Virus record (IMG/VR): IMGVR_UViG_3300049847_000499
Location: 1 to 29,240 of that record
Reading direction: 5' to 3' (one strand)
Origin: a virus
DNA: 29,240 bases
A program made the position numbers and the translations under genes. Positions 952 through 10,408 of the stretch are shown piece after piece; position 1 is the first letter of the stretch, and each line of letters opens with the position of its first letter. The notes beneath the pieces are model-generated. The model was not told the DNA's origin. It did no database searches and saw only the letters and a list, made by a program, of their open reading frames with translations.

Positions 952-1037
952 GCGACTGCTTTCCCTTCTGCGAATGCGGCGAGCGGGCCTGTCCACCCGA
1001 TGCCGTCAAAGCGCAACGTCGGTGATGTGTCGGTCAT
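948..1037 (-). CDS. 29-residue micro-protein downstream of the ParB-like gene
   Basis: A tiny ORF (MTDTSPTLRFDGIGWTGPL... to KAVA) whose ATG overlaps the stop of the ParB-like gene (ATGA at 1034-1037) and whose stop overlaps the start of the 36-codon ORF. No family is recognised. It could be a genuine small protein or a translated spacer that keeps ribosomes coupled along the operon. The ORF remains open upstream in the same frame, but that extension lies wholly inside the ParB-like gene. Confidence 0.4.
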   Translation of the reverse strand: MTDTSPTLRFDGIGWTGPLAAFAEGKAVA

Positions 1038-2509
1038 GCTGGATCGTCGCCGTCGCAGAGTTGTTCGGCTTCGTTGGTGACGGCAGCGAGTTGGCAGTCG
1101 TCGCATGTGTTCTTGCCGGTCGATGGGATTGGTCTGGCGCATGTCGTGCAGGATTTGCAGAGTTCCGTCTTGGTCTTCGTGCTCGGGTGTGGGTCGGTCC
1201 ATCCATGTGCGATTGCCCAGTCGTACTGAGGTTCGCCGGAGGTGTAACCCTGAACGACGGCGCAGAGGAAGAGGACGAGTGCGATCCATGCTGGTGTCGA
1301 TTTCGTGACGGCAAAGTCTTCGAGTGCACTGATCTTTTCGTTGATTGTCTTGCAGGATTTGCGGTCGATCGTGGTGTATTTGAGTGCTGCGTCGTAGATG
1401 TCGGACTGGTAAATGACGCCTCGGATTGTGCGTTGGAGGAGCATTGCCCGGTCGACGTCGGAGACCTGGTAGCGGGTCATGAATTCGCGGGCCCAGGCGA
1501 GCATTGATTCGCTGCGTTCGCGGCGTCGTTGGTCAGTTGTTGAGAGCGCGGTCGGGGTCCTGGTGGTTTTCAGTTTCGATGCGCCGTCCTTCTTGTGGCG
1601 GTCGGGGTCGACGCAGACTGCTTCGTCGATGACTCCGCCCCAGGTGGCGAGGGTGACGAGGTGGCCGTGGCACGATTCGGTTTGGTGGGCGTCGGTGTCG
1701 TCGGCGTTGAGGCCGAGCATCCACAGTCGTTTCGTTGTCGGTGCTTCTTTCTCGACGATCCGGTGGTGTTTCTTGCGGTGCGCTGCGAGTGCCTTTTCGA
1801 GTTTCCGTTGGTTCGATTCGTGGTCGAGTGCACGTTCGATGTCGTGGCGTTTTGGTGTTGTTCGTTCGAGGGTGGCGGGTTGTAGTCGGGCGGCTTTTTC
1901 GGCGAGTTCCCATGTGATCTCGCCTGCATCGAGCGCTGTGAGGTAGCGGGGTGGGAGGGTCACGATTTTGAGGCGGAGGCCTACCCATTTTTCGGATGAG
2001 CCGATTTTGCGGGCCAGGTCGCTGATTGTGATTCCGAGGGCGGCGCACCGTGAGATTGCGAGGATTTCCTCGGCTGGTGTGAGGTCGCGGCGTCGGAGGT
2101 TTTCGACGGCTTGCGCGATGACGGCCTGGTGATCGTCGAGGTCTTGGACGACGGCAGGGATTGTCGTGAGGCCGAGGTGGATCGTGGCGCGGTAGCGGCG
2201 TTCGCCGGCGACGATCCGCCACCGGACACCGTTGCCAGGAACCGGTCGGACAAGGATTGGCTGCAGGACCCCGAGTTCCCGGATTGATTCGATGAAATCG
2301 GGGTCGAGGTTCGCGGGCCGGTTGTCGGGGTCGGGGTCGATTGCGTCGACCGGCATGTCAGCAACGAACCCGACGGGGAGCGGAGCGAGCGGCAGTCCTT
2401 CGCTGGGTCGTCGGTCGTCGAGTGAGGCGACGGACGCGACGCCGTTCTCGGGCGCTGGCAGCTTCTTGGTGTTGCGGGGCTTCTTGGCGGTAGCGGTAGC
2501 GGTGGTCAT
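1034..2509 (-). CDS. ParB/Srx-domain DNA-binding protein
   Basis: A 491-residue ParB-like protein. Residues about 45-150 form the ParB N-terminal fold, with the signature GERRYRA preceded by a motif of the type LGVLQPILVRP. A KorB-like helix-turn-helix follows (LTPAEEILAISR... then ISDLARKIGSSEKWV). The C-terminal half is unlike chromosomal ParB and ends with a possible zinc site (CKSC, CARP, CDDC). In phages such proteins act in partition, as transcription regulators or, in some families, as nucleases. No ParA ATPase gene is visible beside it, so a full partition system is not supported. Its ATG overlaps the preceding stop (ATGA at 2506-2509) in the early operon. Confidence 0.8.
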   Translation of the reverse strand: MTTATATAKKPRNTKKLPAPENGVASVASLDDRRPSEGLPLAPLPVGFVADMPVDAIDPDPDNRPANLDPDFIESIRELGVLQPILVRPVPGNGVRWRIVAGERRYRATIHLGLTTIPAVVQDLDDHQAVIAQAVENLRRRDLTPAEEILAISRCAALGITISDLARKIGSSEKWVGLRLKIVTLPPRYLTALDAGEITWELAEKAARLQPATLERTTPKRHDIERALDHESNQRKLEKALAAHRKKHHRIVEKEAPTTKRLWMLGLNADDTDAHQTESCHGHLVTLATWGGVIDEAVCVDPDRHKKDGASKLKTTRTPTALSTTDQRRRERSESMLAWAREFMTRYQVSDVDRAMLLQRTIRGVIYQSDIYDAALKYTTIDRKSCKTINEKISALEDFAVTKSTPAWIALVLFLCAVVQGYTSGEPQYDWAIAHGWTDPHPSTKTKTELCKSCTTCARPIPSTGKNTCDDCQLAAVTNEAEQLCDGDDPA

Positions 2510-2775: not shown

Positions 2776-3038
2776 CACGACGGTCGTCCTTGCGCGAGGA
2801 GTGCACGGGCGGTCGCGAGCTCATGTTGTGCTCGTTCGCGTCGGTGGTGTGCACGGACGCAGGCGGGGCAGCCGTCGTGGTCGCCTGGTGCGAGCGTCCG
2901 GGTTTCGGTGAGGCCAGTCGGGTCGGCGATGTCGCAGGCGATCTCAAGGGAGTCTCGGAGCCAGTGCCAGCGGCCGGTCGTGGGGTCGAGGCTCCAGACG
3001 TCGTCGACGAACAAGCGTTGCGGAAGGTCGCCGGTCAT
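2775..3038 (-). CDS. Small cysteine-pair protein downstream of the initiator
   Basis: An 87-residue protein. The first half contains SLDPTTGRWHWLRDSLE. The second half has a CPAC pair followed by HH and a long basic helix (RAHHRRERAQHELATARALL), which together could bind one zinc ion (C, C, H, H). No family is recognised. The ATG overlaps the initiator stop (ATGA at 3035-3038) and its own stop overlaps the next start. A helper of the initiator or a small DNA-binding protein is possible; this is inference from position only. Confidence 0.55.
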   Translation of the reverse strand: MTGDLPQRLFVDDVWSLDPTTGRWHWLRDSLEIACDIADPTGLTETRTLAPGDHDGCPACVRAHHRRERAQHELATARALLAQGRPS

Positions 3039-4006
3039 GCTGCGCTCCTGACTCGTTCGTATTCCGCGAGTGCTTCGGTCACGTGGTTGTCAAGGCCTCG
3101 GCTGTGGAGCGCCATGACGAGGTCGTCGACGTCGAGGTGGGCCCAGTTCTGCGCGAGGTTCAGTGCGGCACGCCGATCGCGGTCGGTGCGGTCTTCGGTC
3201 GACGATGTCGTGTCGGGTGGTGGTGCGGTCAGCGATGGCCAATGCCGGGCGATTGATGCGGCAGACGGGACGAGTGCTGGCCAGAGCTGGCGGTGTGCGT
3301 TCCCGGCTGCACGGACTTGGTCAGCTGTTCCGCCGGCGGCAGCGAGCTGGCGGGCTGCTCGTCGGATCCGTCGATCCGACGATGCCGGCAGTGGCCCGGA
3401 CCAGGACCGGTGCTCCACGTCGAGCAGGGCGGCGAAGACGTCGTCGACGAGTGCGGGATCACCCTGCCCGTCCTCCCCCGGAGGGGGTAAGGGGGAGAGT
3501 TGTTCTTCATCTTCATCTTCATCTGTTGCGTGACATTCGACGATGTCACGCGTGACAGGACTCGGAACAGCCGTTGACCTGGTCGTATGTGTTTCCTCCC
3601 CAGGCCCAGCGGCGACGAGCGGTAGCTGCTCGTTGTGGAGAACCGAGGGTTTTCCACCGCGGACACGTTGCTGGCGACGCATCGCAGCGGCCCGGTTTTC
3701 CACAAGGCGCCGTTCGCGTTCCACGATCTGCTCGTGATCGGAGAGGAGCCAGCCGCCACCCTCGACGGTCATCCACAGCCCAGATGTCTCGAGCAACGAG
3801 ACGAGCTGGTCCGGATTGGTCACGCCGACGGTGCCGGCGAGCATGCGCGGCACAGCAGCGGAGACGCGGCCACCGGTGGCCTGATGCGATGCCCACGTGC
3901 GCACACGCAGGTCGAGGAGCACCGCGAGCGGATCGCCGGCGGCGATCGCCAAGATCTCGGGCTGGTCGAAATGGTCGTGAGGGTGCTGCATCCACGTCGA
4001 CGTCAC
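3035..4006 (-). CDS. Replication initiator-like (winged-helix replisome organiser) protein
   Basis: A 323-residue protein built like phage replisome organisers. The N-terminal part (about 20-115) resembles a winged-helix domain ending in a Trp-rich wing (GLWMTVEGGGWLLSDHEQ) and a basic helix. A disordered acidic linker follows (around 160-180, DEDEDEE, then proline-rich). The C-terminal helical part contains a segment of the type SAASIARHWPSL, common at the end of phage helicase-loader or initiator proteins. It starts at GTG, overlapping the preceding stop (GTGA). No helicase or polymerase is encoded, so it would recruit the host replisome. DnaA-box-like sites and short repeats lie inside the gene. 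The functional call rests on architecture and position, not on an active-site motif. Confidence 0.65.
   Translation of the reverse strand: MTSTWMQHPHDHFDQPEILAIAAGDPLAVLLDLRVRTWASHQATGGRVSAAVPRMLAGTVGVTNPDQLVSLLETSGLWMTVEGGGWLLSDHEQIVERERRLVENRAAAMRRQQRVRGGKPSVLHNEQLPLVAAGPGEETHTTRSTAVPSPVTRDIVECHATDEDEDEEQLSPLPPPGEDGQGDPALVDDVFAALLDVEHRSWSGPLPASSDRRIRRAARQLAAAGGTADQVRAAGNAHRQLWPALVPSAASIARHWPSLTAPPPDTTSSTEDRTDRDRRAALNLAQNWAHLDVDDLVMALHSRGLDNHVTEALAEYERVRSAA
3505..3777 (+). other. Candidate replication origin inside the initiator gene
   Basis: Four 9-mers close to the DnaA box TTATCCACA sit within about 145 bp: TTCTCCACA (minus, 3634-3642), TTTTCCACC (3650-3658), TTTTCCACA (3696-3704) and TCATCCACA (3769-3777). 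To the left are three copies of GCGTGACA (3528-3535, inverted at 3544-3551, 3550-3557). Beside them is a comparatively AT-rich run of repeated CTTCAT units (3505-3523), which encodes the acidic linker. Origins nested in the linker of the initiator gene are known from lambda-type phages. Whether this is an origin is inference. Confidence 0.4.
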
Positions 4007-5007
4007 CGCATCCGCTCCCGGAACTCTGTGGCGATGTCCCCGCGGACGAACTCGCCGTCAGCGGTAAGCCGGTAGAGCTGCGGGTATGGCGCGAGCACGA
4101 CTCCGTCGATGTCGACTGAGTCGCCGATCACCCCGACGTGCGCCCTGACCGGCGCACCATCTCGCCACGACGTCAACACGATGGATCCGGACCCCGACGC
4201 ACTCGCCTGGCCCTGGTCCCCCGACGCACTCGCCTGGCCCTGGTCCCCCGACGCACTCGCCTGGCCTCGGTCCCCCGACGCACTCGCCTGGCCTCGGTCC
4301 CCCGACGCACTCGCCTGGCCCTGGTACCCCGACGCACTCGCCTGGCCTCGGTACCCCGACGCACTCGCCTGGCCTCGGTACCCCGACGCACTCGCCTGGC
4401 CTCGGTCCCCCGACGCACTCGCCTGGCCCTCGTCCCCCGACGCACTCGCCTGGCCTCGGTACCCCGACGCACTCGCCTGGCCTCGGTCCCCCGACGCACT
4501 CGCCTGGCCCTCGTACCCCGACGCACTCGCCTGGCCTCGGTCCCCCGACGCACTCGCCTGGCCCTGGTCCCCCGACGCACTCGCCTGGCCTCGGTACCCC
4601 GACGCACTCGCCTGGCCTCGGTACCCCGACGCACTCGCCTGTTCGATGACCGAGTCGGTGTCCGCGATCGCCCGGAGGCGGTCGGGGACAGACTGTCCGA
4701 GTGGGGCTGTCCATGACCCGCTGAAGAGGACCTCGGCTTCGGAGTCTGTGAGACGGAGCAGCTGTTGGGCGGCAGCGCTGATTGAGCCGCCTGGCCGGTC
4801 TGCTGGCGGGGTGAGGGCGACTGCCCATCCGGCGATGCATCCCCTGGTGCCGCATTCGCCGATCGCATCGGCCGCGATGAACGGAGCTTTCGATGCGATT
4901 TCGCTGCTGCCGGTCAGCCAAGCGTCCTGGAGGTGCAGCTCGGGTCGTTGCTCGAGGACGTCCGCGATCTGGTGCAGGAGCGGACCGTTGAGGTGCGGCG
5001 TGGTCAT
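4003..5007 (-). CDS. Nonapeptide-repeat protein with an N-terminal CGT..C domain
   Basis: A 334-residue protein in three parts. The N-terminal ~120 residues resemble a small phage domain marked by ECGTRGCIAGWAVAL. The middle holds seventeen copies of QASASG separated by sixteen three-residue linkers (Tyr or Asp, then Arg, Gln or Glu, then Gly), a 9-residue period. The C-terminal ~60 residues form a compact domain beginning after GSGSIVLTSW. The repeat is likely a beta-solenoid, since Ala/Ser/Gly repeats of this kind stack. Function is unknown. The gene sits in the early operon between an HTH gene and the initiator, coupled on both sides, so it is probably not a virion fibre. The DNA repeats are nearly identical even at silent positions, a sign of recent expansion or homogenisation. 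Confidence 0.7.
   Translation of the reverse strand: MTTPHLNGPLLHQIADVLEQRPELHLQDAWLTGSSEIASKAPFIAADAIGECGTRGCIAGWAVALTPPADRPGGSISAAAQQLLRLTDSEAEVLFSGSWTAPLGQSVPDRLRAIADTDSVIEQASASGYRGQASASGYRGQASASGDQGQASASGDRGQASASGYEGQASASGDRGQASASGYRGQASASGDEGQASASGDRGQASASGYRGQASASGYRGQASASGYQGQASASGDRGQASASGDRGQASASGDQGQASASGDQGQASASGSGSIVLTSWRDGAPVRAHVGVIGDSVDIDGVVLAPYPQLYRLTADGEFVRGDIATEFRERMR
4195..4641 (-). repeat. 27-bp tandem repeat, 17 copies, in coding sequence
   Basis: The 15-mer CAGGCGAGTGCGTCG (minus strand) recurs every 27 bp exactly, from 4641 down to 4195. Between copies only two codons change: TAC or GAC, then CGA, CAG or GAG. In protein order the sixteen pairs are YR, YR, DQ, DR, YE, DR, YR, DE, DR, YR, YR, YQ, DR, DR, DQ, DQ. 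All six combinations occur. Arrays like this expand and contract by slippage or recombination. Confidence 0.95.
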
Positions 5008-5225
5008 GCTGCGATCCAGACGGTGTCGAGGTGTTCGCCGAGTGCGGTGGCGATGAGGTCGGCTTCGGTGAGGGTTAATCCGTGGTGCCAGCGTCGGTGC
5101 ACGGTGCGTTCGGTGACGCCGAGGATTTCGGCGATTCGGTCGGCCGAGGTGCGCTGGCGGATTGGGTCGGCGGGGAATTCTCGGGCCGCTGGGGTGCGGT
5201 AGCGCCGGTGGGTGGTGGTGGTCAT
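5004..5225 (-). CDS. Small helix-turn-helix protein
   Basis: A 73-residue protein with a basic N-terminus and a helix-turn-helix (ADRIAEILGVTERTVHRRW, about residues 28-46) followed by a helix in which TEADLIATALGEH suggests a HTH/MerR- or sigma-like DNA-binding fold. It is probably a transcription regulator of the early operon. The ATG at 5225 forms an ATGA overlap with the preceding stop; the longer frame starting at 5252 would lie in the upstream gene. Its stop overlaps the start of the repeat-protein gene (5004-5007). Confidence 0.65.
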   Translation of the reverse strand: MTTTTHRRYRTPAAREFPADPIRQRTSADRIAEILGVTERTVHRRWHHGLTLTEADLIATALGEHLDTVWIAA

Positions 5226-5749
5226 GTGTTCTCCAGTTGGGTCAGGGTCCATGCGAGTGCGGCGTCGAGCCGGTCGGCGGGGACGGTTTGCGGTACGCCG
5301 TATCTGGCGGCGAACTTCGTTTTGGCGTCGCTGCGTGCGGCGGCGTCGGGGATGGTGTTGAGGAGGTCGACGATCTGTTCGGCTCTCGGGTCGAGTGCTC
5401 GTGGCGCAGCAGGCGCAGCGGCGTGTTCGACGGCGATGGTCCAGCGCTTGTAACGGCGTCCGGTTGAGGAGCGGTGGTCTCCGCCGTACATGACCGCGAT
5501 CCGGTCACCGGCCGCGGGCGTGTGGAGCTCGAGCTGTTCCGCGGCGATCGTGCCGGCCGCGTGCCACGCGACGACCGTGCCGTCGGTGTCGATCACGACG
5601 ACGGGGTATTCCTGTGTCGAGGCGGTCGCGTCGCGGGTGTCGATCCGTACGACGACGCCTTCGATGCCGTCACCGGCCCGGTCGGGCTGCCATGCCTCAG
5701 CAGCTACCGATTGGGTTTGTGCTCGGAGTTGGTCGAGGAGTGAGCCCAT
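5222..5749 (-). CDS. OB-fold-like protein, possible single-strand DNA-binding
   Basis: A 175-residue protein. Residues about 25-110 show alternating beta strands (GIEGVVVRIDTRD, EYPVVVIDTDG, AGDRIAVMYGGDH, YKRWTIAVE) with a Gly-rich turn, as in OB-fold proteins of actinophages. The C-terminal part is helical and contains a short conserved-looking tail (AKTKFAARYGVPQTVP...). Its place beside initiator and HTH genes suits a nucleic-acid-binding role in replication, but no canonical SSB motif or acidic SSB tail is seen. The ATG at 5749 overlaps the previous stop as TGATG; the frame is open 21 codons further but that part lies inside the upstream gene. Confidence 0.5.
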   Translation of the reverse strand: MGSLLDQLRAQTQSVAAEAWQPDRAGDGIEGVVVRIDTRDATASTQEYPVVVIDTDGTVVAWHAAGTIAAEQLELHTPAAGDRIAVMYGGDHRSSTGRRYKRWTIAVEHAAAPAAPRALDPRAEQIVDLLNTIPDAAARSDAKTKFAARYGVPQTVPADRLDAALAWTLTQLENT

Positions 5750-6117
5750 CACGCCACCGCCGACGATGCACCGAGGTGTGCAGCGAGCTGGGCACGCGAC
5801 ACACGGACACATCGGCCGAGACGGACCACTCCAGGGATCTGGTCGTGATCGATCGCGGTGTGCACGGCCCGGACCGGGATCCCGAGCAGACCAGCCACGT
5901 CAGTGACACGCCACACGAGCGGAGTCCTCAGGTCAGGGAGCGGAGCACCAGGACCATCGACCAACACCGCCACATCCACCGCACGCCACAACCGGCAACC
6001 ACCCACCACCACCACCGGCACACCGCGCCGGCCAAGCTCACCCGCCTGGTCGACCACGTGCTGATCCGACACCAGCAACAAGGACCCAACCTCCGCGGCG
6101 GTGAGCGCGAGCCTCAT
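5749..6117 (-). CDS. Tandem helix-turn-helix protein (two excisionase-like domains)
   Basis: A 122-residue protein with two similar halves. Residues 1-55 read LTAAEVGSLLLVSDQHV... followed by a strand of the type GGCRLWRAVDVAVLV. Residues 68-118 read WRVTDVAGLLGIPVRAV... followed by GRCVRVSRAQLAAHLG. Each half has the helix-turn-helix plus beta-wing pattern of excisionase/MerR-like domains, so this looks like an internal duplication. It probably binds DNA at paired sites and may be an early regulator. The start overlaps the preceding stop (TGATG) and the stop overlaps the OB-fold gene start. Confidence 0.6.
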   Translation of the reverse strand: MRLALTAAEVGSLLLVSDQHVVDQAGELGRRGVPVVVVGGCRLWRAVDVAVLVDGPGAPLPDLRTPLVWRVTDVAGLLGIPVRAVHTAIDHDQIPGVVRLGRCVRVSRAQLAAHLGASSAVA

Positions 6118-6526: not shown

Positions 6527-7312
6527 TCAGGACTGCAACGTCAAAGCACGTCGACGAGCGAGACGCCGCTCGACGACATCCACAACCCGGCGTTGCCACT
6601 GCAAGTGCTCGTGGATTCGGCCCGACGCATGCCGGACCGGGATCTGCACCGCGAACGGACGGCCATCAGCGGTCGGGGTCCACTGGTCGTTCTGCCACCA
6701 CTGCAGCCCGAGGTCTTTCAGGAGCTGGTTGACGCGCATCCCTGAGATCGGCGGGACGAGCAGCGACCCGATCGTCGTGACCGTGATCGGCGCAAGCATC
6801 GGATCATCCGGATCGCGCCGATCAACCTTCGCGGTGACCTGCTCCAACCGGGCGACCGTCTCAGCCTGCTGATGCTCGAGATGAGCAGTCGACGCAGCCA
6901 GGCCGGTAATCCGGGACTCCTGCACCTCCAACGCCTCGAGCAGGGCACGCGACAACGCCAACGGCGACGCCGACACCGGATCCGGGGCGCTCGCACGTGG
7001 CGACACCACAAGCTCCTCAGCGAAGTCGCGGAACCGACGAGCACGATCCGACGTGATCATGAAACCGAGACGGACCACGCCCCGCTGCGACCACATCACA
7101 ACCTGCTGCAACCCACCAGGGGTGTGACGATCTGTCACGACCCAATGCCGACCCTCGAGCAGCTCGTCACCACGCCGCGACTTCGCCTGCCGCACCGCAT
7201 CCGGCGTGCACCCAAAACCGTCGGCAACGTCCGCGGTCGACAACAACCAGCCCAACCCGGCATCCGGCTCAACCTCGAGATGCACATCCTCGAACGACAC
7301 GATCGAACCCAT
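6527..7312 (-). CDS. Phage antirepressor-like protein
   Basis: A 261-residue protein. The N-terminal half (about 20-110) resembles Bro-N/KilA-type antirepressor domains: WLLSTADVADGFGCTPDAV, then GRHWVVTD, then WSQRGVVRLGFMI and a final helix FRDFAEELV. A coiled-coil linker follows (around 135-175). The C-terminal segment (VTTIGSLLVPPISGMRVN, QLLKDLGLQWWQND, TADGRPFAVQI) matches the layout of the KilA-C/ANT domain. Antirepressors of this type oppose the lysogenic repressor. The ATG at 7312 overlaps the stop of the Cro-like gene as TGATG, so the two are co-translated from the leftward immunity promoter. The open frame upstream of 7312 is a shadow. Confidence 0.7.
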   Translation of the reverse strand: MGSIVSFEDVHLEVEPDAGLGWLLSTADVADGFGCTPDAVRQAKSRRGDELLEGRHWVVTDRHTPGGLQQVVMWSQRGVVRLGFMITSDRARRFRDFAEELVVSPRASAPDPVSASPLALSRALLEALEVQESRITGLAASTAHLEHQQAETVARLEQVTAKVDRRDPDDPMLAPITVTTIGSLLVPPISGMRVNQLLKDLGLQWWQNDQWTPTADGRPFAVQIPVRHASGRIHEHLQWQRRVVDVVERRLARRRALTLQS

Positions 7313-7581
7313 CACGCCACCGCCTTCCGGCGACGACCACGCTGGAAGGGCCAGGAGTCCTCGTCGACGAGTCGCGGGTCGGGGTCGGGGCCGATCAGCA
7401 CAGCGGGCGAGATCCCGAGAGCCTTCGCGATTCGGGCCAGGCGTCCCCACGAGGGCTGCTCTTCGCCTGCCTCCATCTTCGAGAGATTCGGTTGAGGCAT
7501 GCCGACGGCGTCTGCGAGAGCTGAGATCGACAGGCCCCGCTCCGTCCGCCACTGCTTCAGCGCAGCCGGGTTGATTCGCAT
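7312..7581 (-). CDS. Cro-like XRE-family helix-turn-helix regulator
   Basis: An 89-residue protein with a textbook XRE domain at residues about 8-62: LKQWRTERGLSISALADAVG, then MPQPNLSKMEAGEEQPSWG, then LARIAKALGISPAVL. The C-terminus is short and basic. It is the first gene of the leftward early transcript and is divergent from the repressor gene, the standard position of Cro. The ATG at 7579-7581 begins only five bases after a -10-like hexamer (TAGAGT) and has no Shine-Dalgarno sequence, so the mRNA may be leaderless. The frame extends to 7617 but that start would lie upstream of the promoter elements. Confidence 0.8.
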   Translation of the reverse strand: MRINPAALKQWRTERGLSISALADAVGMPQPNLSKMEAGEEQPSWGRLARIAKALGISPAVLIGPDPDPRLVDEDSWPFQRGRRRKAVA

Positions 7582-7586
7582 GCCTA

Positions 7587-7617
7587 ACTCTACGCATGAA
7601 CTAGGCCCGGTTGTCAA
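7587..7617 (-). promoter_or_regulatory. Leftward early promoter with leaderless start
   Basis: On the minus strand, TTGACA (7612-7617) is followed after 19 bases by TAGAGT (7587-7592). The Cro-like ATG lies five bases further on, where transcription would be expected to begin. An ATGCGT hexamer overlaps the spacer end, so repressor or Cro binding would cover the promoter. Confidence 0.55.
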
Positions 7618-7733
7618 CTAGATTACTCACGCATAGAAAACCCCAGGTCATCCACAGCGCTTCGCTTGTAACTACAGGGACGTAGCTCTTGTTTCCACAA
7701 CCTCCCCATGCGTAACCTGTGCTTGATATGCGT
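7592..7733. promoter_or_regulatory. Four ACGCAT/ATGCGT candidate operator sites
   Basis: The divergent region between the Cro-like and repressor genes has ACGCAT at 7592-7597 and 7629-7634, and ATGCGT at 7708-7713 and 7728-7733. Read toward the centre, the extended forms are CATGCGTAGA, TATGCGTGAG, CATGCGTAAC and TATGCGTAGA. The two right-hand copies are exactly 20 bp apart, about two helical turns. The sites overlap both candidate promoters, as expected for operators bound by the XRE proteins encoded on either side. Confidence 0.6.
7689..7718 (+). promoter_or_regulatory. Candidate rightward repressor promoter
   Basis: TTGTTT (7689-7694) and TAACCT (7713-7718) are separated by 18 bases. The -10-like box overlaps one ATGCGT candidate operator, which would allow the repressor to regulate itself. 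Transcription would begin near 7725, ahead of the ATGs at 7750 and 7758. Confidence 0.35.
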
Positions 7734-7757
7734 AGAGATTCCTTGGACGATGCCGCC

Positions 7758-8103
7758 ATGGAAAGACTCGGAAGCGCGGTGCGGTCACGCCGACGAGTTG
7801 CTCGAACTGAAGCAAGACGAGGCAGCAGCCGCCGCCGGGTTGTCGCTGGCGACCTGGAACAAGATCGAGAACGGCCGGCCAGGTACCCCGTTCATCAGCA
7901 CACGACGAGCTATCGCAAAGGCGCTCGGGTGGACACCCGACAGCATCGCGAGAGTGCTTCGCGGCGAAGACCCGATAGTCGAGGCTGGTCACGCGACGGC
8001 CCACTCCGTCGACGAGCGCCTCGCCGGTATGACCGCAGAACACCGAGCCGCAGCAAAAGCAGCGATCGAGGTGCTCCTGGACCGCATCGAGTCGAGCCTC
8101 TAG
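7758..8103 (+). pseudogene. XRE-family lysogenic repressor, apparent frameshift near 7790
   Basis: This is the likely immunity repressor. From the ATG at 7758, one frame gives MERLGSAVRSR, a typical first helix of an XRE domain. From 7792 a different frame gives DELLELKQDEAAAAAGLS, LATWNKIENG and a complete remainder (IAKALGWTPDSIARVLRGEDP) to the stop at 8101-8103. Removing one C at 7788-7791 joins them into a normal HTH protein of about 114 residues. As written, the uninterrupted frame (ATG at 7708 or 7750) has an N-terminus that does not resemble helix one. Possible causes are a real mutation, a sequencing error or +1 frameshifting. The C-terminal half has no protease domain, so induction would not be LexA-like and may use the ImmA-type peptidase. 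Confidence 0.65.
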
Positions 8104-8136: not shown

Positions 8137-8634
8137 ATGGCAACGAAGGAAGGGCGCGTAGCTGCGAATGCTGAGGCGGCGGCAGCGAAGGCCAGCGCGA
8201 AGGCGCTGCGACCGCTGTGGAAGAAGAAGCGGGTGATCATCCCGGTGGCACTGATGGCCGTGGCGATCTTGGTCAGCGTCTCGAACGGTGGGAAGAAGTC
8301 CGCTTCGACTGCGGTCTCGGGTTCGGACACGATCGCCGGGGTGACCGGTGAAGTGAAAGAGATCAAGGACGTGACGGTCACCTCGTGCAAAGCCGAGTTC
8401 GGTCTAGCAACTGTGGGTCTGAAGGCCACGAACTCGTCGTCAAAACGGTCGGACTACAGCGTCACCGTGAACCTGTTTGCCGCCGACGGCACTCAGATCG
8501 GGACCGCCGACGGGTTCCTCGAAAAGGTTGATCCGGCGAAGTCTGCACTTCACGACGCAGTAGGCACCGTGGCGGACGGCAGCACCCTTGACCACTGCTC
8601 GATCGTCAAGGTCAATCGCACAGCGAGCATTTGA
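8137..8634 (+). CDS. Membrane-anchored FxLYD-like extracellular protein
   Basis: A 165-residue protein. A basic, Ala-rich cytoplasmic start is followed by one membrane segment at about 36-50 (VIIPVALMAVAILVSVS), a Ser/Thr-rich spacer and an extracellular beta domain. The latter (VTSCKAEFGLATVGLKATNSSS... to HCSIVKVN) resembles FxLYD/DUF3426 domains, with two cysteines able to form a disulphide. The start at 8137 has GGAGG six bases upstream; a GTG at 8131 is the alternative. It lies directly behind the repressor on the same strand, so it is probably expressed in the lysogen. A role in superinfection exclusion or lysogenic conversion is a reasonable inference. Its 3' end overlaps the convergent metallopeptidase gene by 23 bp. 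Confidence 0.65.
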   Translation: MATKEGRVAANAEAAAAKASAKALRPLWKKKRVIIPVALMAVAILVSVSNGGKKSASTAVSGSDTIAGVTGEVKEIKDVTVTSCKAEFGLATVGLKATNSSSKRSDYSVTVNLFAADGTQIGTADGFLEKVDPAKSALHDAVGTVADGSTLDHCSIVKVNRTASI

Positions 8635-9217
8635 CGTTCTCGGCGATTTCGTCGAGGAGCGCGAGCGTTGCCGGCGTGATCTGGCCAACGATTCCGGTGA
8701 GGTGCATTCGTCGGCCGGCCGGGGTGGTGACGGTTTCGCAGCGCTCGGTCGGCGTGGCTGGGTGGCGCGCGGTCGCCCGTTTGGTTGCTGCGTCGAGTGC
8801 GATGGCGGCGTAGCGCTGTGGGACGGCCCAGGCGTCCGATACAGCCACGGCGTCGACGTGGGAGTCGTCGGCAACGCGTGCTGTGATCCAGGTGTCGAGC
8901 TCGGCGGGTGGCACGAGCTGGTCGACCGCAGCTCGGTCTACGGTCGCCTCTTCCCGGGCAAGGATCGCGCCCCACCGCATGCCGGGGATCGGCTCCGGAA
9001 GGCCTCCACCGCGGGCGATGTGCTCGAGCTCGTGAGCGAGGACTGCGGTGCGGTCGGTCTGATCGAGCCCGGCATCGAGCACGACCACCCAATCCCCCAT
9101 CGGCGTCTGCCGACACGCCCCGCGATACCCGGGCGGGAGAGGTGCGATCCGGACGTGAATGTCAGAGCGATGCGCGATCCGGGCCCACGGTGATGTCCGC
9201 CTCATCGGATCGATCAT
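8612..9217 (-). CDS. ImmA/IrrE-type zinc metallopeptidase
   Basis: A protein of about 201 residues with the zinc-protease motif HELEH at about residues 62-66 (VLAHELEHIARGGG) and a downstream glutamate in AREEATVDRAA, matching ImmA/IrrE peptidases. In mobile elements these cleave a partner XRE repressor to start induction, which fits the adjacent repressor gene. The C-terminal ~90 residues are of unknown fold and end in a CSLC motif. Candidate starts are the ATGs at 9217 and 9205 and a TTG at 9235; none has a clear Shine-Dalgarno. It follows the integrase gene by about 30 bp on the same strand and runs into the repressor operon from the opposite side. Confidence 0.75.
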   Translation of the reverse strand: MIDPMRRTSPWARIAHRSDIHVRIAPLPPGYRGACRQTPMGDWVVVLDAGLDQTDRTAVLAHELEHIARGGGLPEPIPGMRWGAILAREEATVDRAAVDQLVPPAELDTWITARVADDSHVDAVAVSDAWAVPQRYAAIALDAATKRATARHPATPTERCETVTTPAGRRMHLTGIVGQITPATLALLDEIAENVKCSLCD

Positions 9218-9247
9218 GACCGCGGGGTCTGACAATAAGGAGGCGTT

Positions 9248-10408
9248 TCATCCACTGGTCGGGCGTGCCGCTCCGGCCGCGGGGCCGGCCGCGACGGTAG
9301 GCGCGGCGAGCAGATCAGCAGCCGCTCGGGCTTTCGTGTCGGTTGGGTGTGCGTAGGTGCGGAGAAGGACTTCGGGGCTGTGGCCGAGTCGGCCGGCGGC
9401 GGTTGTTGCGTCGATGCCGGCGGCGATGAGGTTGGTTGCGGCTCGGTGGCGGAGGTCGTGCATGCGGACGGTTCGGAGGGCGGGGACGTGGTCGCGGAGC
9501 ACGGTCCATTGCCAGGATGGCCAGTCGTAGGGTCGGCGGGTGCGGCCTTCGGCGGTACCGGTGAACAGCCAGCGCTGTTGCGGGGATGGGTCGGCGAAGA
9601 GGCCGGCGAGAGCTCGGGTCTGGGCCCAGTGGTGTGCGAGGAGCTCGATCGTGACGGCGTCGAGGTGGACGGTGCGAGGGTGCCCGTTCTTGGGCGGCTG
9701 GTCGTCGGCTCGAGGGACCACGGTTCGTTCGATCGTGAGTGTGCCGGCGTCGAGGTCGATGTCGGTCCAACGCAGAGCGAGGATCTCCCCGCGCCGTGCA
9801 CCGGTGATCACGAGGAGGTGCAGGAAGATCCCGAGCTCGGCCGAGATCTGGTGCGCTGCAGTGAGTGCGGCACTGACGACGTCATCGGCTGGCACGGTGA
9901 TCGTCTGCGGAGGCCGGCGCGGGATCGAGGCACCAGCAGCCGGGTTGCGGGTGATCAAATCCCAGCGGAGCGCGGACTTGAGCGCAGCGTCGAGGAGCGC
10001 ATGGACGGACTGGATCGAGCGAGGTCCGAGGCCAGCAGCGCGGAGGCGCGCGTAGTGCTCATCGATGTGTTGGGCGGTGAGACGGTCGAGTCGGATCTTG
10101 GCGATCGGGTGCGGCCGGATCCACCGGTCGACGCGGCGGCGATACTCCGCCTTCGAGCTTTCCCGGATCGTGTCGGCGAGGAGCTCAAGGTGGCGTTCGA
10201 GCAGGTCAAGGACGGTCGACGACCGTTCGGCTGGCACGTGTCGCCGGCGGAGCTCCACGACTTCGGCACGGATCTGGTCCTCGAGCTGACGCGCTTGGCG
10301 CACACCAGCACCCTTCGGCGCCAAGCGAGTGAACTGGCGCATGCGCCCATCGATGCGGACCGTGACGATCGCCTGCAGGCGGCCGTCCGGGCGTTCCCGG
10401 ATTGCCAC
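9248..10408 (-). CDS. int: Tyrosine-family integrase
   Basis: A 386-residue phage integrase. An N-terminal arm-binding beta domain occupies about 1-55, a helical core-binding domain (ERHLELLADTIR... to ALRWDL) 65-165, and the catalytic domain follows. The active-site set is present: Arg in TGARRGEILALRW, a lysine-bearing turn (PPKNGHPRTVHL), HDLRH, a His in GRLGHS and the nucleophilic Tyr in LLRTYAHP near the C-terminus. Translation begins at GTG (10406-10408) behind an AG-rich sequence. The gene lies immediately downstream of the candidate attP region, the usual int-attP order. It should recombine attP with the 3' end of a host acyl-CoA dehydrogenase gene. Confidence 0.95.
   Translation of the reverse strand: MAIRERPDGRLQAIVTVRIDGRMRQFTRLAPKGAGVRQARQLEDQIRAEVVELRRRHVPAERSSTVLDLLERHLELLADTIRESSKAEYRRRVDRWIRPHPIAKIRLDRLTAQHIDEHYARLRAAGLGPRSIQSVHALLDAALKSALRWDLITRNPAAGASIPRRPPQTITVPADDVVSAALTAAHQISAELGIFLHLLVITGARRGEILALRWTDIDLDAGTLTIERTVVPRADDQPPKNGHPRTVHLDAVTIELLAHHWAQTRALAGLFADPSPQQRWLFTGTAEGRTRRPYDWPSWQWTVLRDHVPALRTVRMHDLRHRAATNLIAAGIDATTAAGRLGHSPEVLLRTYAHPTDTKARAAADLLAAPTVAAGPAAGAARPTSG

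What the first reader, a model, noticed from the sequence alone, without database searches (positions are those of the whole stretch)
4195..4641. Combinatorial nonapeptide array: 17 identical units, two variable residues, all six combinations used
The array keeps QASASG and Gly unchanged down to the DNA level, while one position toggles Tyr/Asp and the next toggles Arg/Gln/Glu. All six pairings occur. Near-identity at silent sites implies recent expansion or gene conversion, yet variation is confined to two adjacent, presumably surface-exposed side chains. That suggests a rapidly re-sortable binding face, as on a beta-solenoid. The operon context (replication and regulation) makes this unlike a tail fibre.
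Basis: partly seen in the sequence, partly recalled or inferred. Interest (0 to 1): 0.7.

Follow-up and report, generated by a model that had tools for sequence, protein, structure and literature searches.

The report
Phage repeat array with shuffled dipeptides
An early gene of a bacterial virus encodes a predicted rod of near-identical nine-residue units in which only two neighbouring amino acids vary; many unrelated phages carry the same design with the rest of the unit held almost fixed, which suggests a rapidly re-sorted recognition surface whose target is still unknown.

Summary
ORF 4003-5007 (-) has 16 full QASASG[Y/D][R/Q/E]G units plus a 17th ending SGS. All six pairs occur, and none of the 21 bases outside those two codons varies. 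It is a translated gene, overlapping both operon neighbours.

It belongs to an undescribed, widespread module. I analysed 157 arrays (1,674 units) from phages and prophages of many phyla. Variation sits in the same two residues (nucleotide diversity 0.39, against 0.06 at scaffold silent sites; higher in 154 of 157). Silent codons agree within arrays and differ between arrays (6% vs 61%), so units undergo concerted evolution. Fifteen arrays found without the degenerate pattern agree. Pseudomonas phages with 89-99% identical flanks share about three dipeptides (YQ, NR, DY) in unrelated orders and numbers (9-28 units). AlphaFold models the array as a beta-solenoid (pLDDT 85-95).

Relatives lie among recombination, replication and repressor genes. 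Most carry DUF7666, which resembles ADP-ribosyltransferase folds; the window protein has another N-terminal domain.

Best reading: a hypervariable interaction surface of an early phage protein, re-sorted by recombination and kept diverse by selection. Partner and function are unknown. Its layout resembles the TALE repeat-variable di-residue, without homology. Copy number in this metagenomic contig is uncertain.

The parts
4003..5007 (-). Array gene, 334 aa, ATG start at 5007, stop 4003-4005; overlaps both neighbouring ORFs by 4 bases
4642..5007 (-). N-terminal domain, residues 1-122, with the motif CGTRGCIAGWA; related to PHROG 889 (function unknown); not DUF7666
   Evidence: phrog_889 E 1.4e-11 over residues 4-106; no match to the DUF7666-array profile (E 0.43); no Pfam match
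4210..4641 (-). 16 full units QASASG-[Y/D]-[R/Q/E]-G, residues 123-266, identical in 23 of 27 nucleotides
   Evidence: AlphaFold pLDDT 85-95, one strand per unit
4183..4209 (-). 17th, terminal unit QASASGSGS, the join to the C-terminal cap
4006..4182 (-). C-terminal cap, residues 276-334; collinear with the cap of DUF7666-array proteins, weak as a stand-alone match
   Evidence: hhalign E 0.014, 42 columns, 21% identity (probability only 3%); phrog_20209 E 0.04 (residues 273-318), phrog_27197 E 4e-5 (227-320)
5004..5252 (-). Small HTH protein upstream in the same operon, overlapping the array gene by 4 bases
3035..4006 (-). Next gene downstream, 323 aa, no family match, overlapping the array gene by 4 bases
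1034..2509 (-). ParB-like protein of the same operon
   Evidence: PF02195 E 2.2e-19
5749..6117 (-). Excisionase-like HTH protein (context)
   Evidence: PF12728 E 5.2e-06
6527..7597 (-). Anti-repressor-like protein (context)
   Evidence: phrog_23341 E 2.8e-11, phrog_130 E 2.9e-4
9248..10408 (-). Tyrosine integrase: temperate phage (context)

Best explanation
The gene encodes an early protein of a temperate actinobacteriophage: a small N-terminal domain, a rod-like beta-solenoid of nine-residue units, and a C-terminal cap. Each unit is one strand plus one turn. G9, A2 and A4 pack inwards; residue 7 lies in the turn and residue 8 opens the strand facing outwards, so the two variable residues form a regular exposed pattern (inferred). 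The identical scaffold DNA lets units recombine, duplicate and be lost, which homogenises silent sites and reshuffles order; phage annealing recombinases often encoded nearby may help (inferred). Selection keeps several dipeptide 'letters' in play. The outcome is a hypervariable interaction surface, most likely used inside the infected cell to engage, or to escape recognition by, a fast-evolving partner such as a host defence factor, a rival-phage factor or another copy of itself. Shown: confinement of variation, concerted evolution, excess of amino-acid over silent variation, reshuffling between close relatives, early-region location. Predicted: the fold. Inferred: exposure, recombination route, binding. 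Unknown: the partner.
For: Unit anatomy with no silent change. 157 arrays: diversity 0.389 at bases 1-2 of codons 7 and 8 against 0.061 at scaffold four-fold sites, higher in 154 of 157; 15 arrays found by protein similarity, units unfiltered: 0.396 against 0.022. Silent differences 6% within and 61% between arrays; only 42 of 689 residue classes use more than one codon. Pseudomonas phages: flanks 89-99% identical at the DNA level, orders no closer than shuffled, 9-28 units, same three main letters. Salmonella ES18 and SEN22: highly similar flanks, different letters. AlphaFold: strand x8-G-Q-A-S-A, turn S-G-x7, pLDDT 85-95; matches the predicted fold of the Xanthomonas phage CP1 relative (TM 0.89, rmsd 1.6). 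Early-region context.
Against: No partner, phenotype or expression datum. Order is statistically free, so it may carry no information. Three Pseudomonas phages recorded on the same host strain, PA14, have unrelated orders, which argues against order being set by a fixed host target. Two phages have arrays broken by a frame shift, so the gene may be dispensable. Identical phages share identical arrays, so turnover is fast only relative to substitution. Solved-structure matches to the solenoid are weak (best Z 5.3, rmsd 6.0).
Confidence: 0.55

Rival explanations
1. Spacer rod: the solenoid is a rigid linker or oligomerisation stalk. Mixed polar letters are kept for solubility or to prevent self-stacking, but their order and identity carry no specific information.
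For: Order looks random, with only a slight excess of equal neighbours (lag-1 z 2.55); copy number varies widely (9-28 in Pseudomonas phages); letters are almost all polar or aromatic, aliphatic 2-5% and no proline at position 8.
Against: No like-charge avoidance or opposite-charge pairing at lags 1-5, which a stacking constraint should give. A passive linker does not obviously need diversity at two codons 6 to 18 times the silent diversity of the same units.
Confidence: 0.27
2. Targeted mutagenesis, as in a diversity-generating retroelement, writes variation into codons 7 and 8.
For: Variation is confined to six adjacent bases per unit.
Against: The same residue almost always has the same codon within an array (42 exceptions in 689 classes). 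In the window the variable bases are T/G, C/G, G/A and A/G, not adenine-specific. No reverse transcriptase among the window ORFs scanned, though the contig may be incomplete. Duplicated blocks point to recombination.
Confidence: 0.04
3. Collagen-like triple-helical fibre, as the Pfam and NCBIfam matches suggest.
For: Pfam Collagen 42.2 bits against a cut-off of 27.2; PDB collagen chains E 1e-39.
Against: Glycine is not at every third residue: position 3 of each unit is Ser or Thr, and relatives such as AASNTGNRS have one Gly in nine. Two of the four relatives tested have no collagen match at all. AlphaFold predicts strands.
Confidence: 0.02
4. Functional DNA repeat, such as a protein-binding or recombination site that happens to be in frame.
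For: Silent sites are frozen within the window array.
Against: Codons for the same scaffold residues differ between arrays in 61% of comparisons: the peptide is conserved, not the DNA word.
Confidence: 0.03
5. Assembly artefact: a collapsed or scrambled repeat in a metagenomic contig.
For: 432 bp of 27-bp repeats is hard for short reads; several viral contigs end inside arrays, and one deposited array contains ambiguous bases.
Against: The same architecture occurs in complete genomes and named phages. Misassembly would not favour two residues.
Confidence: 0.05

Closest known systems
DUF7666-array phage proteins (PF24703; e.g. ES18 gp53, Pseudomonas phi2 ALY08205.1)
   Same: Nonapeptide array with only residues 7 and 8 variable, early or regulatory location, collinear C-terminal cap
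   Different: The window protein has a PHROG 889 N-terminal domain instead of DUF7666 and reads QASASG instead of AASATG or AASNTG
E. coli YdhT (NF007410)
   Same: Similar period-nine repeats and a similar C-terminal cap
   Different: Chromosomal, degenerate repeats, full-length and 95-100% identical in about 5,362 of 5,426 genomes; no reshuffling seen
TALE repeat-variable di-residue (from general knowledge)
   Same: Near-identical repeats differing mainly at two adjacent residues, small alphabet, units easily recombined
   Different: TALE repeats are 33-35 residues, helical and bind DNA; here 9 residues, predicted beta, ligand unknown. No homology
Trimeric autotransporter (YadA-type) head repeats and left-handed beta-helices
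   Same: Small-residue, Gly-containing beta-solenoid repeats
   Different: Longer repeats, surface adhesins; no Pfam match here, and fold matches are weak
Rifampin ADP-ribosyltransferase (Arr) and related folds, compared with DUF7666 of the relatives
   Same: The DUF7666 model aligns to Arr, PARP16 and TreTu (Z 4.2-5.2, rmsd 3.4-5.4); the fEg-Aba01 record independently cites the rifampin ADP-ribosyltransferase structure
   Different: Catalytic residues not established; this domain is absent from the window protein

Membership tests
Nonapeptide variable-dipeptide array module | Period 9, small-residue scaffold ending in Gly at position 6, Gly or Ser at position 9 | tested here: met
Nonapeptide variable-dipeptide array module | Variation confined to positions 7 and 8 with near-frozen silent sites | tested here: met
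DUF7666-array proteins | DUF7666 N-terminal domain | tested here: not met
   no Pfam match; hhalign E 0.43
DUF7666-array proteins | C-terminal cap | tested here: inconclusive
   collinear, E 0.014, probability 3%; phrog_20209 E 0.04
Collagen | Gly at every third residue | tested here: not met
   position 3 is Ser in every unit, despite 42 bits to PF01391
TALE | 33-35 residue helical repeats | tested here: not met
   9 residues, strands
TALE | Two adjacent hypervariable residues per otherwise identical repeat | tested here: met
TALE | Residue pair specifies a DNA base | not testable with these tools
   needs a binding assay
Diversity-generating retroelement target | Adenine-specific substitutions at scattered codons | tested here: not met
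   variable bases T/G, C/G, G/A, A/G; one codon per residue
Diversity-generating retroelement target | Reverse transcriptase and template repeat nearby | tested here: inconclusive
   none among the ORFs scanned; the contig may be incomplete
Pentapeptide repeat | Period-five A(D/N)LXX | tested here: not met
   period 9, no Pfam match
RTX nonapeptide | GGxGxDxux calcium-binding motif | tested here: not met
   motif absent, no Pfam match
Phage tail fibre | Located in the structural gene block | tested here: not met
   for the window; for relatives. PHROG tail-fibre matches fall on the repeat region

The most novel reading that the evidence does not exclude
A TALE-like combinatorial recognition code in phages: each nine-residue unit's dipeptide is a letter that contacts one element of a repeating ligand (another array, a polymer or a nucleic acid). 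Phages then carry re-writable specificity strings attached to interchangeable effector domains, usually an ADP-ribosyltransferase-like fold. One version is a like-with-like identity tag that discriminates between competing phages.
Probability: 0.12. Interest if true: 0.95.

Novelty: new variant of a known kind. Interest (0 to 1): 0.7.

Why it matters
It points to a widespread, apparently undescribed class of hypervariable phage proteins hidden under 'hypothetical', 'collagen-like' or even CRISPR annotations. If the array is a recognition surface, early phage genes hold a natural library of modular binders on a minimal nine-residue scaffold, and the contrast between conserved flanks and reshuffled arrays makes the selective force directly testable with isolated Pseudomonas phages. 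If it is only a spacer, it is still an unusually clean case of concerted evolution with diversity kept at two codons.

Tried and rejected
E. coli population test: ES18 gp53 has no DNA match in 5,426 E. coli genomes, and YdhT is fixed and degenerate, so I used Pseudomonas, Acinetobacter and Salmonella phages. Foldseek against PDB gave no significant match for either model; VIA-align gave only weak solenoid matches for the array (best Ag43b Z 5.3, rmsd 6.0). Handedness and coil size remain undetermined; about two units per coil is suggested by alignment spans only. The DUF7666-array alignment could not seed a genome scan. PADLOC: no match. Paper searches for repeat strings, DUF7666 and descriptive terms found nothing on this array; only open-access papers are held. 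A search for ydhT listed no paper about YdhT itself by title; those papers were not read. Word-order autocorrelation and charge patterning: no periodic signal. Ascertainment caveat: the DNA patterns fixed scaffold residues and left residues 7, 8 and silent positions free, and one search kept only units with a good scaffold, so scaffold conservation there is partly conditioned; one search repeats the test on arrays found by protein similarity, without that filter. Arrays are related, so 154 of 157 is not a set of independent trials. A few low-complexity false hits (e.g. L166, L207) were visible, and I did not purge them all.

Full report
WHAT IS THERE. ORF 4003-5007 on the minus strand (334 aa) has three parts: an N-terminal domain (1-122), an array (123-275) and a C-terminal cap (276-334). 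The array is 16 full units QASASG-[Y/D]-[R/Q/E]-G plus a 17th ending SGS. Only nucleotides 19, 22, 23 and 24 of the 27 vary; each residue uses a single codon. All six pairs occur (YR 5, DR 5, DQ 3, YE 1, DE 1, YQ 1). The gene overlaps its two neighbours by 4 bases, so it is part of a translated operon. The window is a temperate phage: integrase, excisionase-like and repressor-like proteins, ParB, then terminase, portal, capsid and tape measure. Its terminase is closest (39%) to Streptomyces phage Kromp, and nearly all terminase matches are phages of Actinomycetota.

A WIDESPREAD MODULE. tblastn found 44 phage records. Across 157 arrays and 1,674 units, nucleotide diversity at the first two bases of codons 7 and 8 is 0.389, against 0.061 at four-fold silent sites of the scaffold, and is higher in 154 of 157. 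Because the patterns and the unit filter favour conserved scaffolds, I repeated the test on 15 arrays found by protein similarity, taking every nine-mer without a filter: amino-acid diversity by position is 0, 0.02.01.02, 0.65.65.01, and nucleotide diversity is 0.396 against 0.022 at silent sites. Residue 7 is mostly Y, D or N (70%); residue 8 is Q, R, S, Y, W, C or K in 92%.

HOW IT EVOLVES. Silent codons for the same residue differ in 6% of unit pairs within an array but 61% between arrays. That is concerted evolution, and it also means the peptide, not a DNA word, is conserved. In 689 residue classes only 42 use more than one codon, which argues against random targeted mutagenesis. L144 and L146 contain repeated blocks of 8 and 12 units at a shift of 11, the mark of unequal recombination. 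Some arrays mix two scaffold lineages (GCC-AGC and GCG-TCG; L016, L150, L145). Identical phages keep identical arrays, so change is fast relative to substitution but not instant. Since all sites of a unit share one recombination history, the excess at codons 7 and 8 implies selection for diversity there (inference).

STRUCTURE. AlphaFold with 31 sequences gives pLDDT 85-95 over the array, one strand per unit. The strand is x8-G-Q-A-S-A and the turn S-G-x7; by strand alternation x8, Q1 and S3 point outwards and G9, A2 and A4 inwards. The N-terminal domain was not modelled reliably (pLDDT below 50 for residues 37-117). Foldseek found no significant solved match; VIA-align gives antigen 43b Z 5.3, rmsd 6.0 over 203 residues. 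The Xanthomonas phage CP1 relative in BFVD matches at TM 0.89 of its length, rmsd 1.6.

CONTEXT AND PARTNERS OF THE MODULE. In ES18 the array gene lies in the early left operon just after the antitermination gene; in SEN22 next to N and a superinfection exclusion gene; in phi2 and TC7 near a ParB-like gene, as in the window; in Acinetobacter phages between a repressor and the excisionase. Of 104 neighbouring ORFs around viral arrays and one genomic locus, recognised ones are mainly exonucleases, RecT/Erf-type annealing proteins, SSB, helicases, polymerase clamp, anti-repressors, repressors and integrases. Most relatives carry DUF7666. Its model aligns to ADP-ribosyltransferase folds: 2aua Z 7.2 (unknown function), Arr-2 5.2, Arr 5.2, PARP16 4.4, TreTu 4.2; each is in the range that can be a common arrangement, but an independent annotation of an Acinetobacter relative cites the rifampin ADP-ribosyltransferase structure too. 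The window protein instead has a PHROG 889 domain, and E. coli YdhT has a third N-terminus. The array and cap therefore look like a portable module; the cap homology for the window is weak on its own. In Actinomycetota the module is rare: 2 of 396 genomes had DUF7666, both of them also matched by the array search.

INTERPRETATION. I favour a hypervariable interaction surface of an early phage protein. I give about one in four to a spacer or stalk with composition but no order constraint: order is statistically random and shows no charge patterning. Phages recorded on the same host strain have unrelated orders (Flu_PA14_4, YA3 and P27 on PA14), so a fixed host target is unlikely to dictate order. 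A diversifying pressure, such as escape from recognition or discrimination between phages, fits better but is untested. Collagen is rejected because glycine is missing from every third triplet, in spite of the Pfam score.

NOVELTY. The layout, identical repeats with a variable di-residue, is that of TALE repeats, but fold, length and setting differ. I found no description of it in the open-access papers searched, which does not exclude one elsewhere. I file it as a new variant of hypervariable repeat proteins; a true letter code would make it categorically new.

Noticed in passing
L142 (Pseudomonas phage TC7) 2333-3307; L273 (Acinetobacter phage fEg-Aba01) 1085-1672: Both array genes are frame-shifted inside or at the start of the array, and the array continues open in another frame downstream; sequencing slips, decay or on/off switching by repeat change.
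   Followed up: partly
L143 (Vibrio phage 1.185.O) 3018-3235: The array is annotated as CRISPR spacers 1-4, a misreading of the repeat and variable-codon pattern.
   Followed up: no
L140 (Salmonella phage SEN22) 2500-3645: The array protein is annotated as a 'c-type lectin precursor'; nothing seen here supports that name.
   Followed up: partly
L152:5748-6560 (-), E. coli MG1655 ydhT: YdhT has degenerate period-nine repeats and a cap like the phage array proteins, fixed across E. coli: a possible domesticated relative in an operon of ferredoxin-like and cytochrome-like genes.
   Followed up: partly
L085 residues 6-105 (DUF7666): DUF7666, a domain of unknown function, aligns to ADP-ribosyltransferase folds; catalytic residues not established.
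   Followed up: partly
L009, L010, L012 near 4300-5950: Proteins with the same CIAGWA domain as the window N-terminus occur as adjacent tandem pairs in viral contigs.
   Followed up: no
L181: Two array genes in one contig with different but overlapping dipeptide alphabets.
   Followed up: no
window 8612-9235 (-): Metalloprotease-like protein (phrog_87, E 2.5e-5) close to repressor-like genes (7312-7617 -, 7708-8103 +) and the integrase, perhaps an ImmA-type switch.
   Followed up: no
L276 (Xanthomonas phage MK21) 1845-2390: The gene after the array is annotated as a polymer-forming cytoskeletal protein, another beta-helix family.
   Followed up: no
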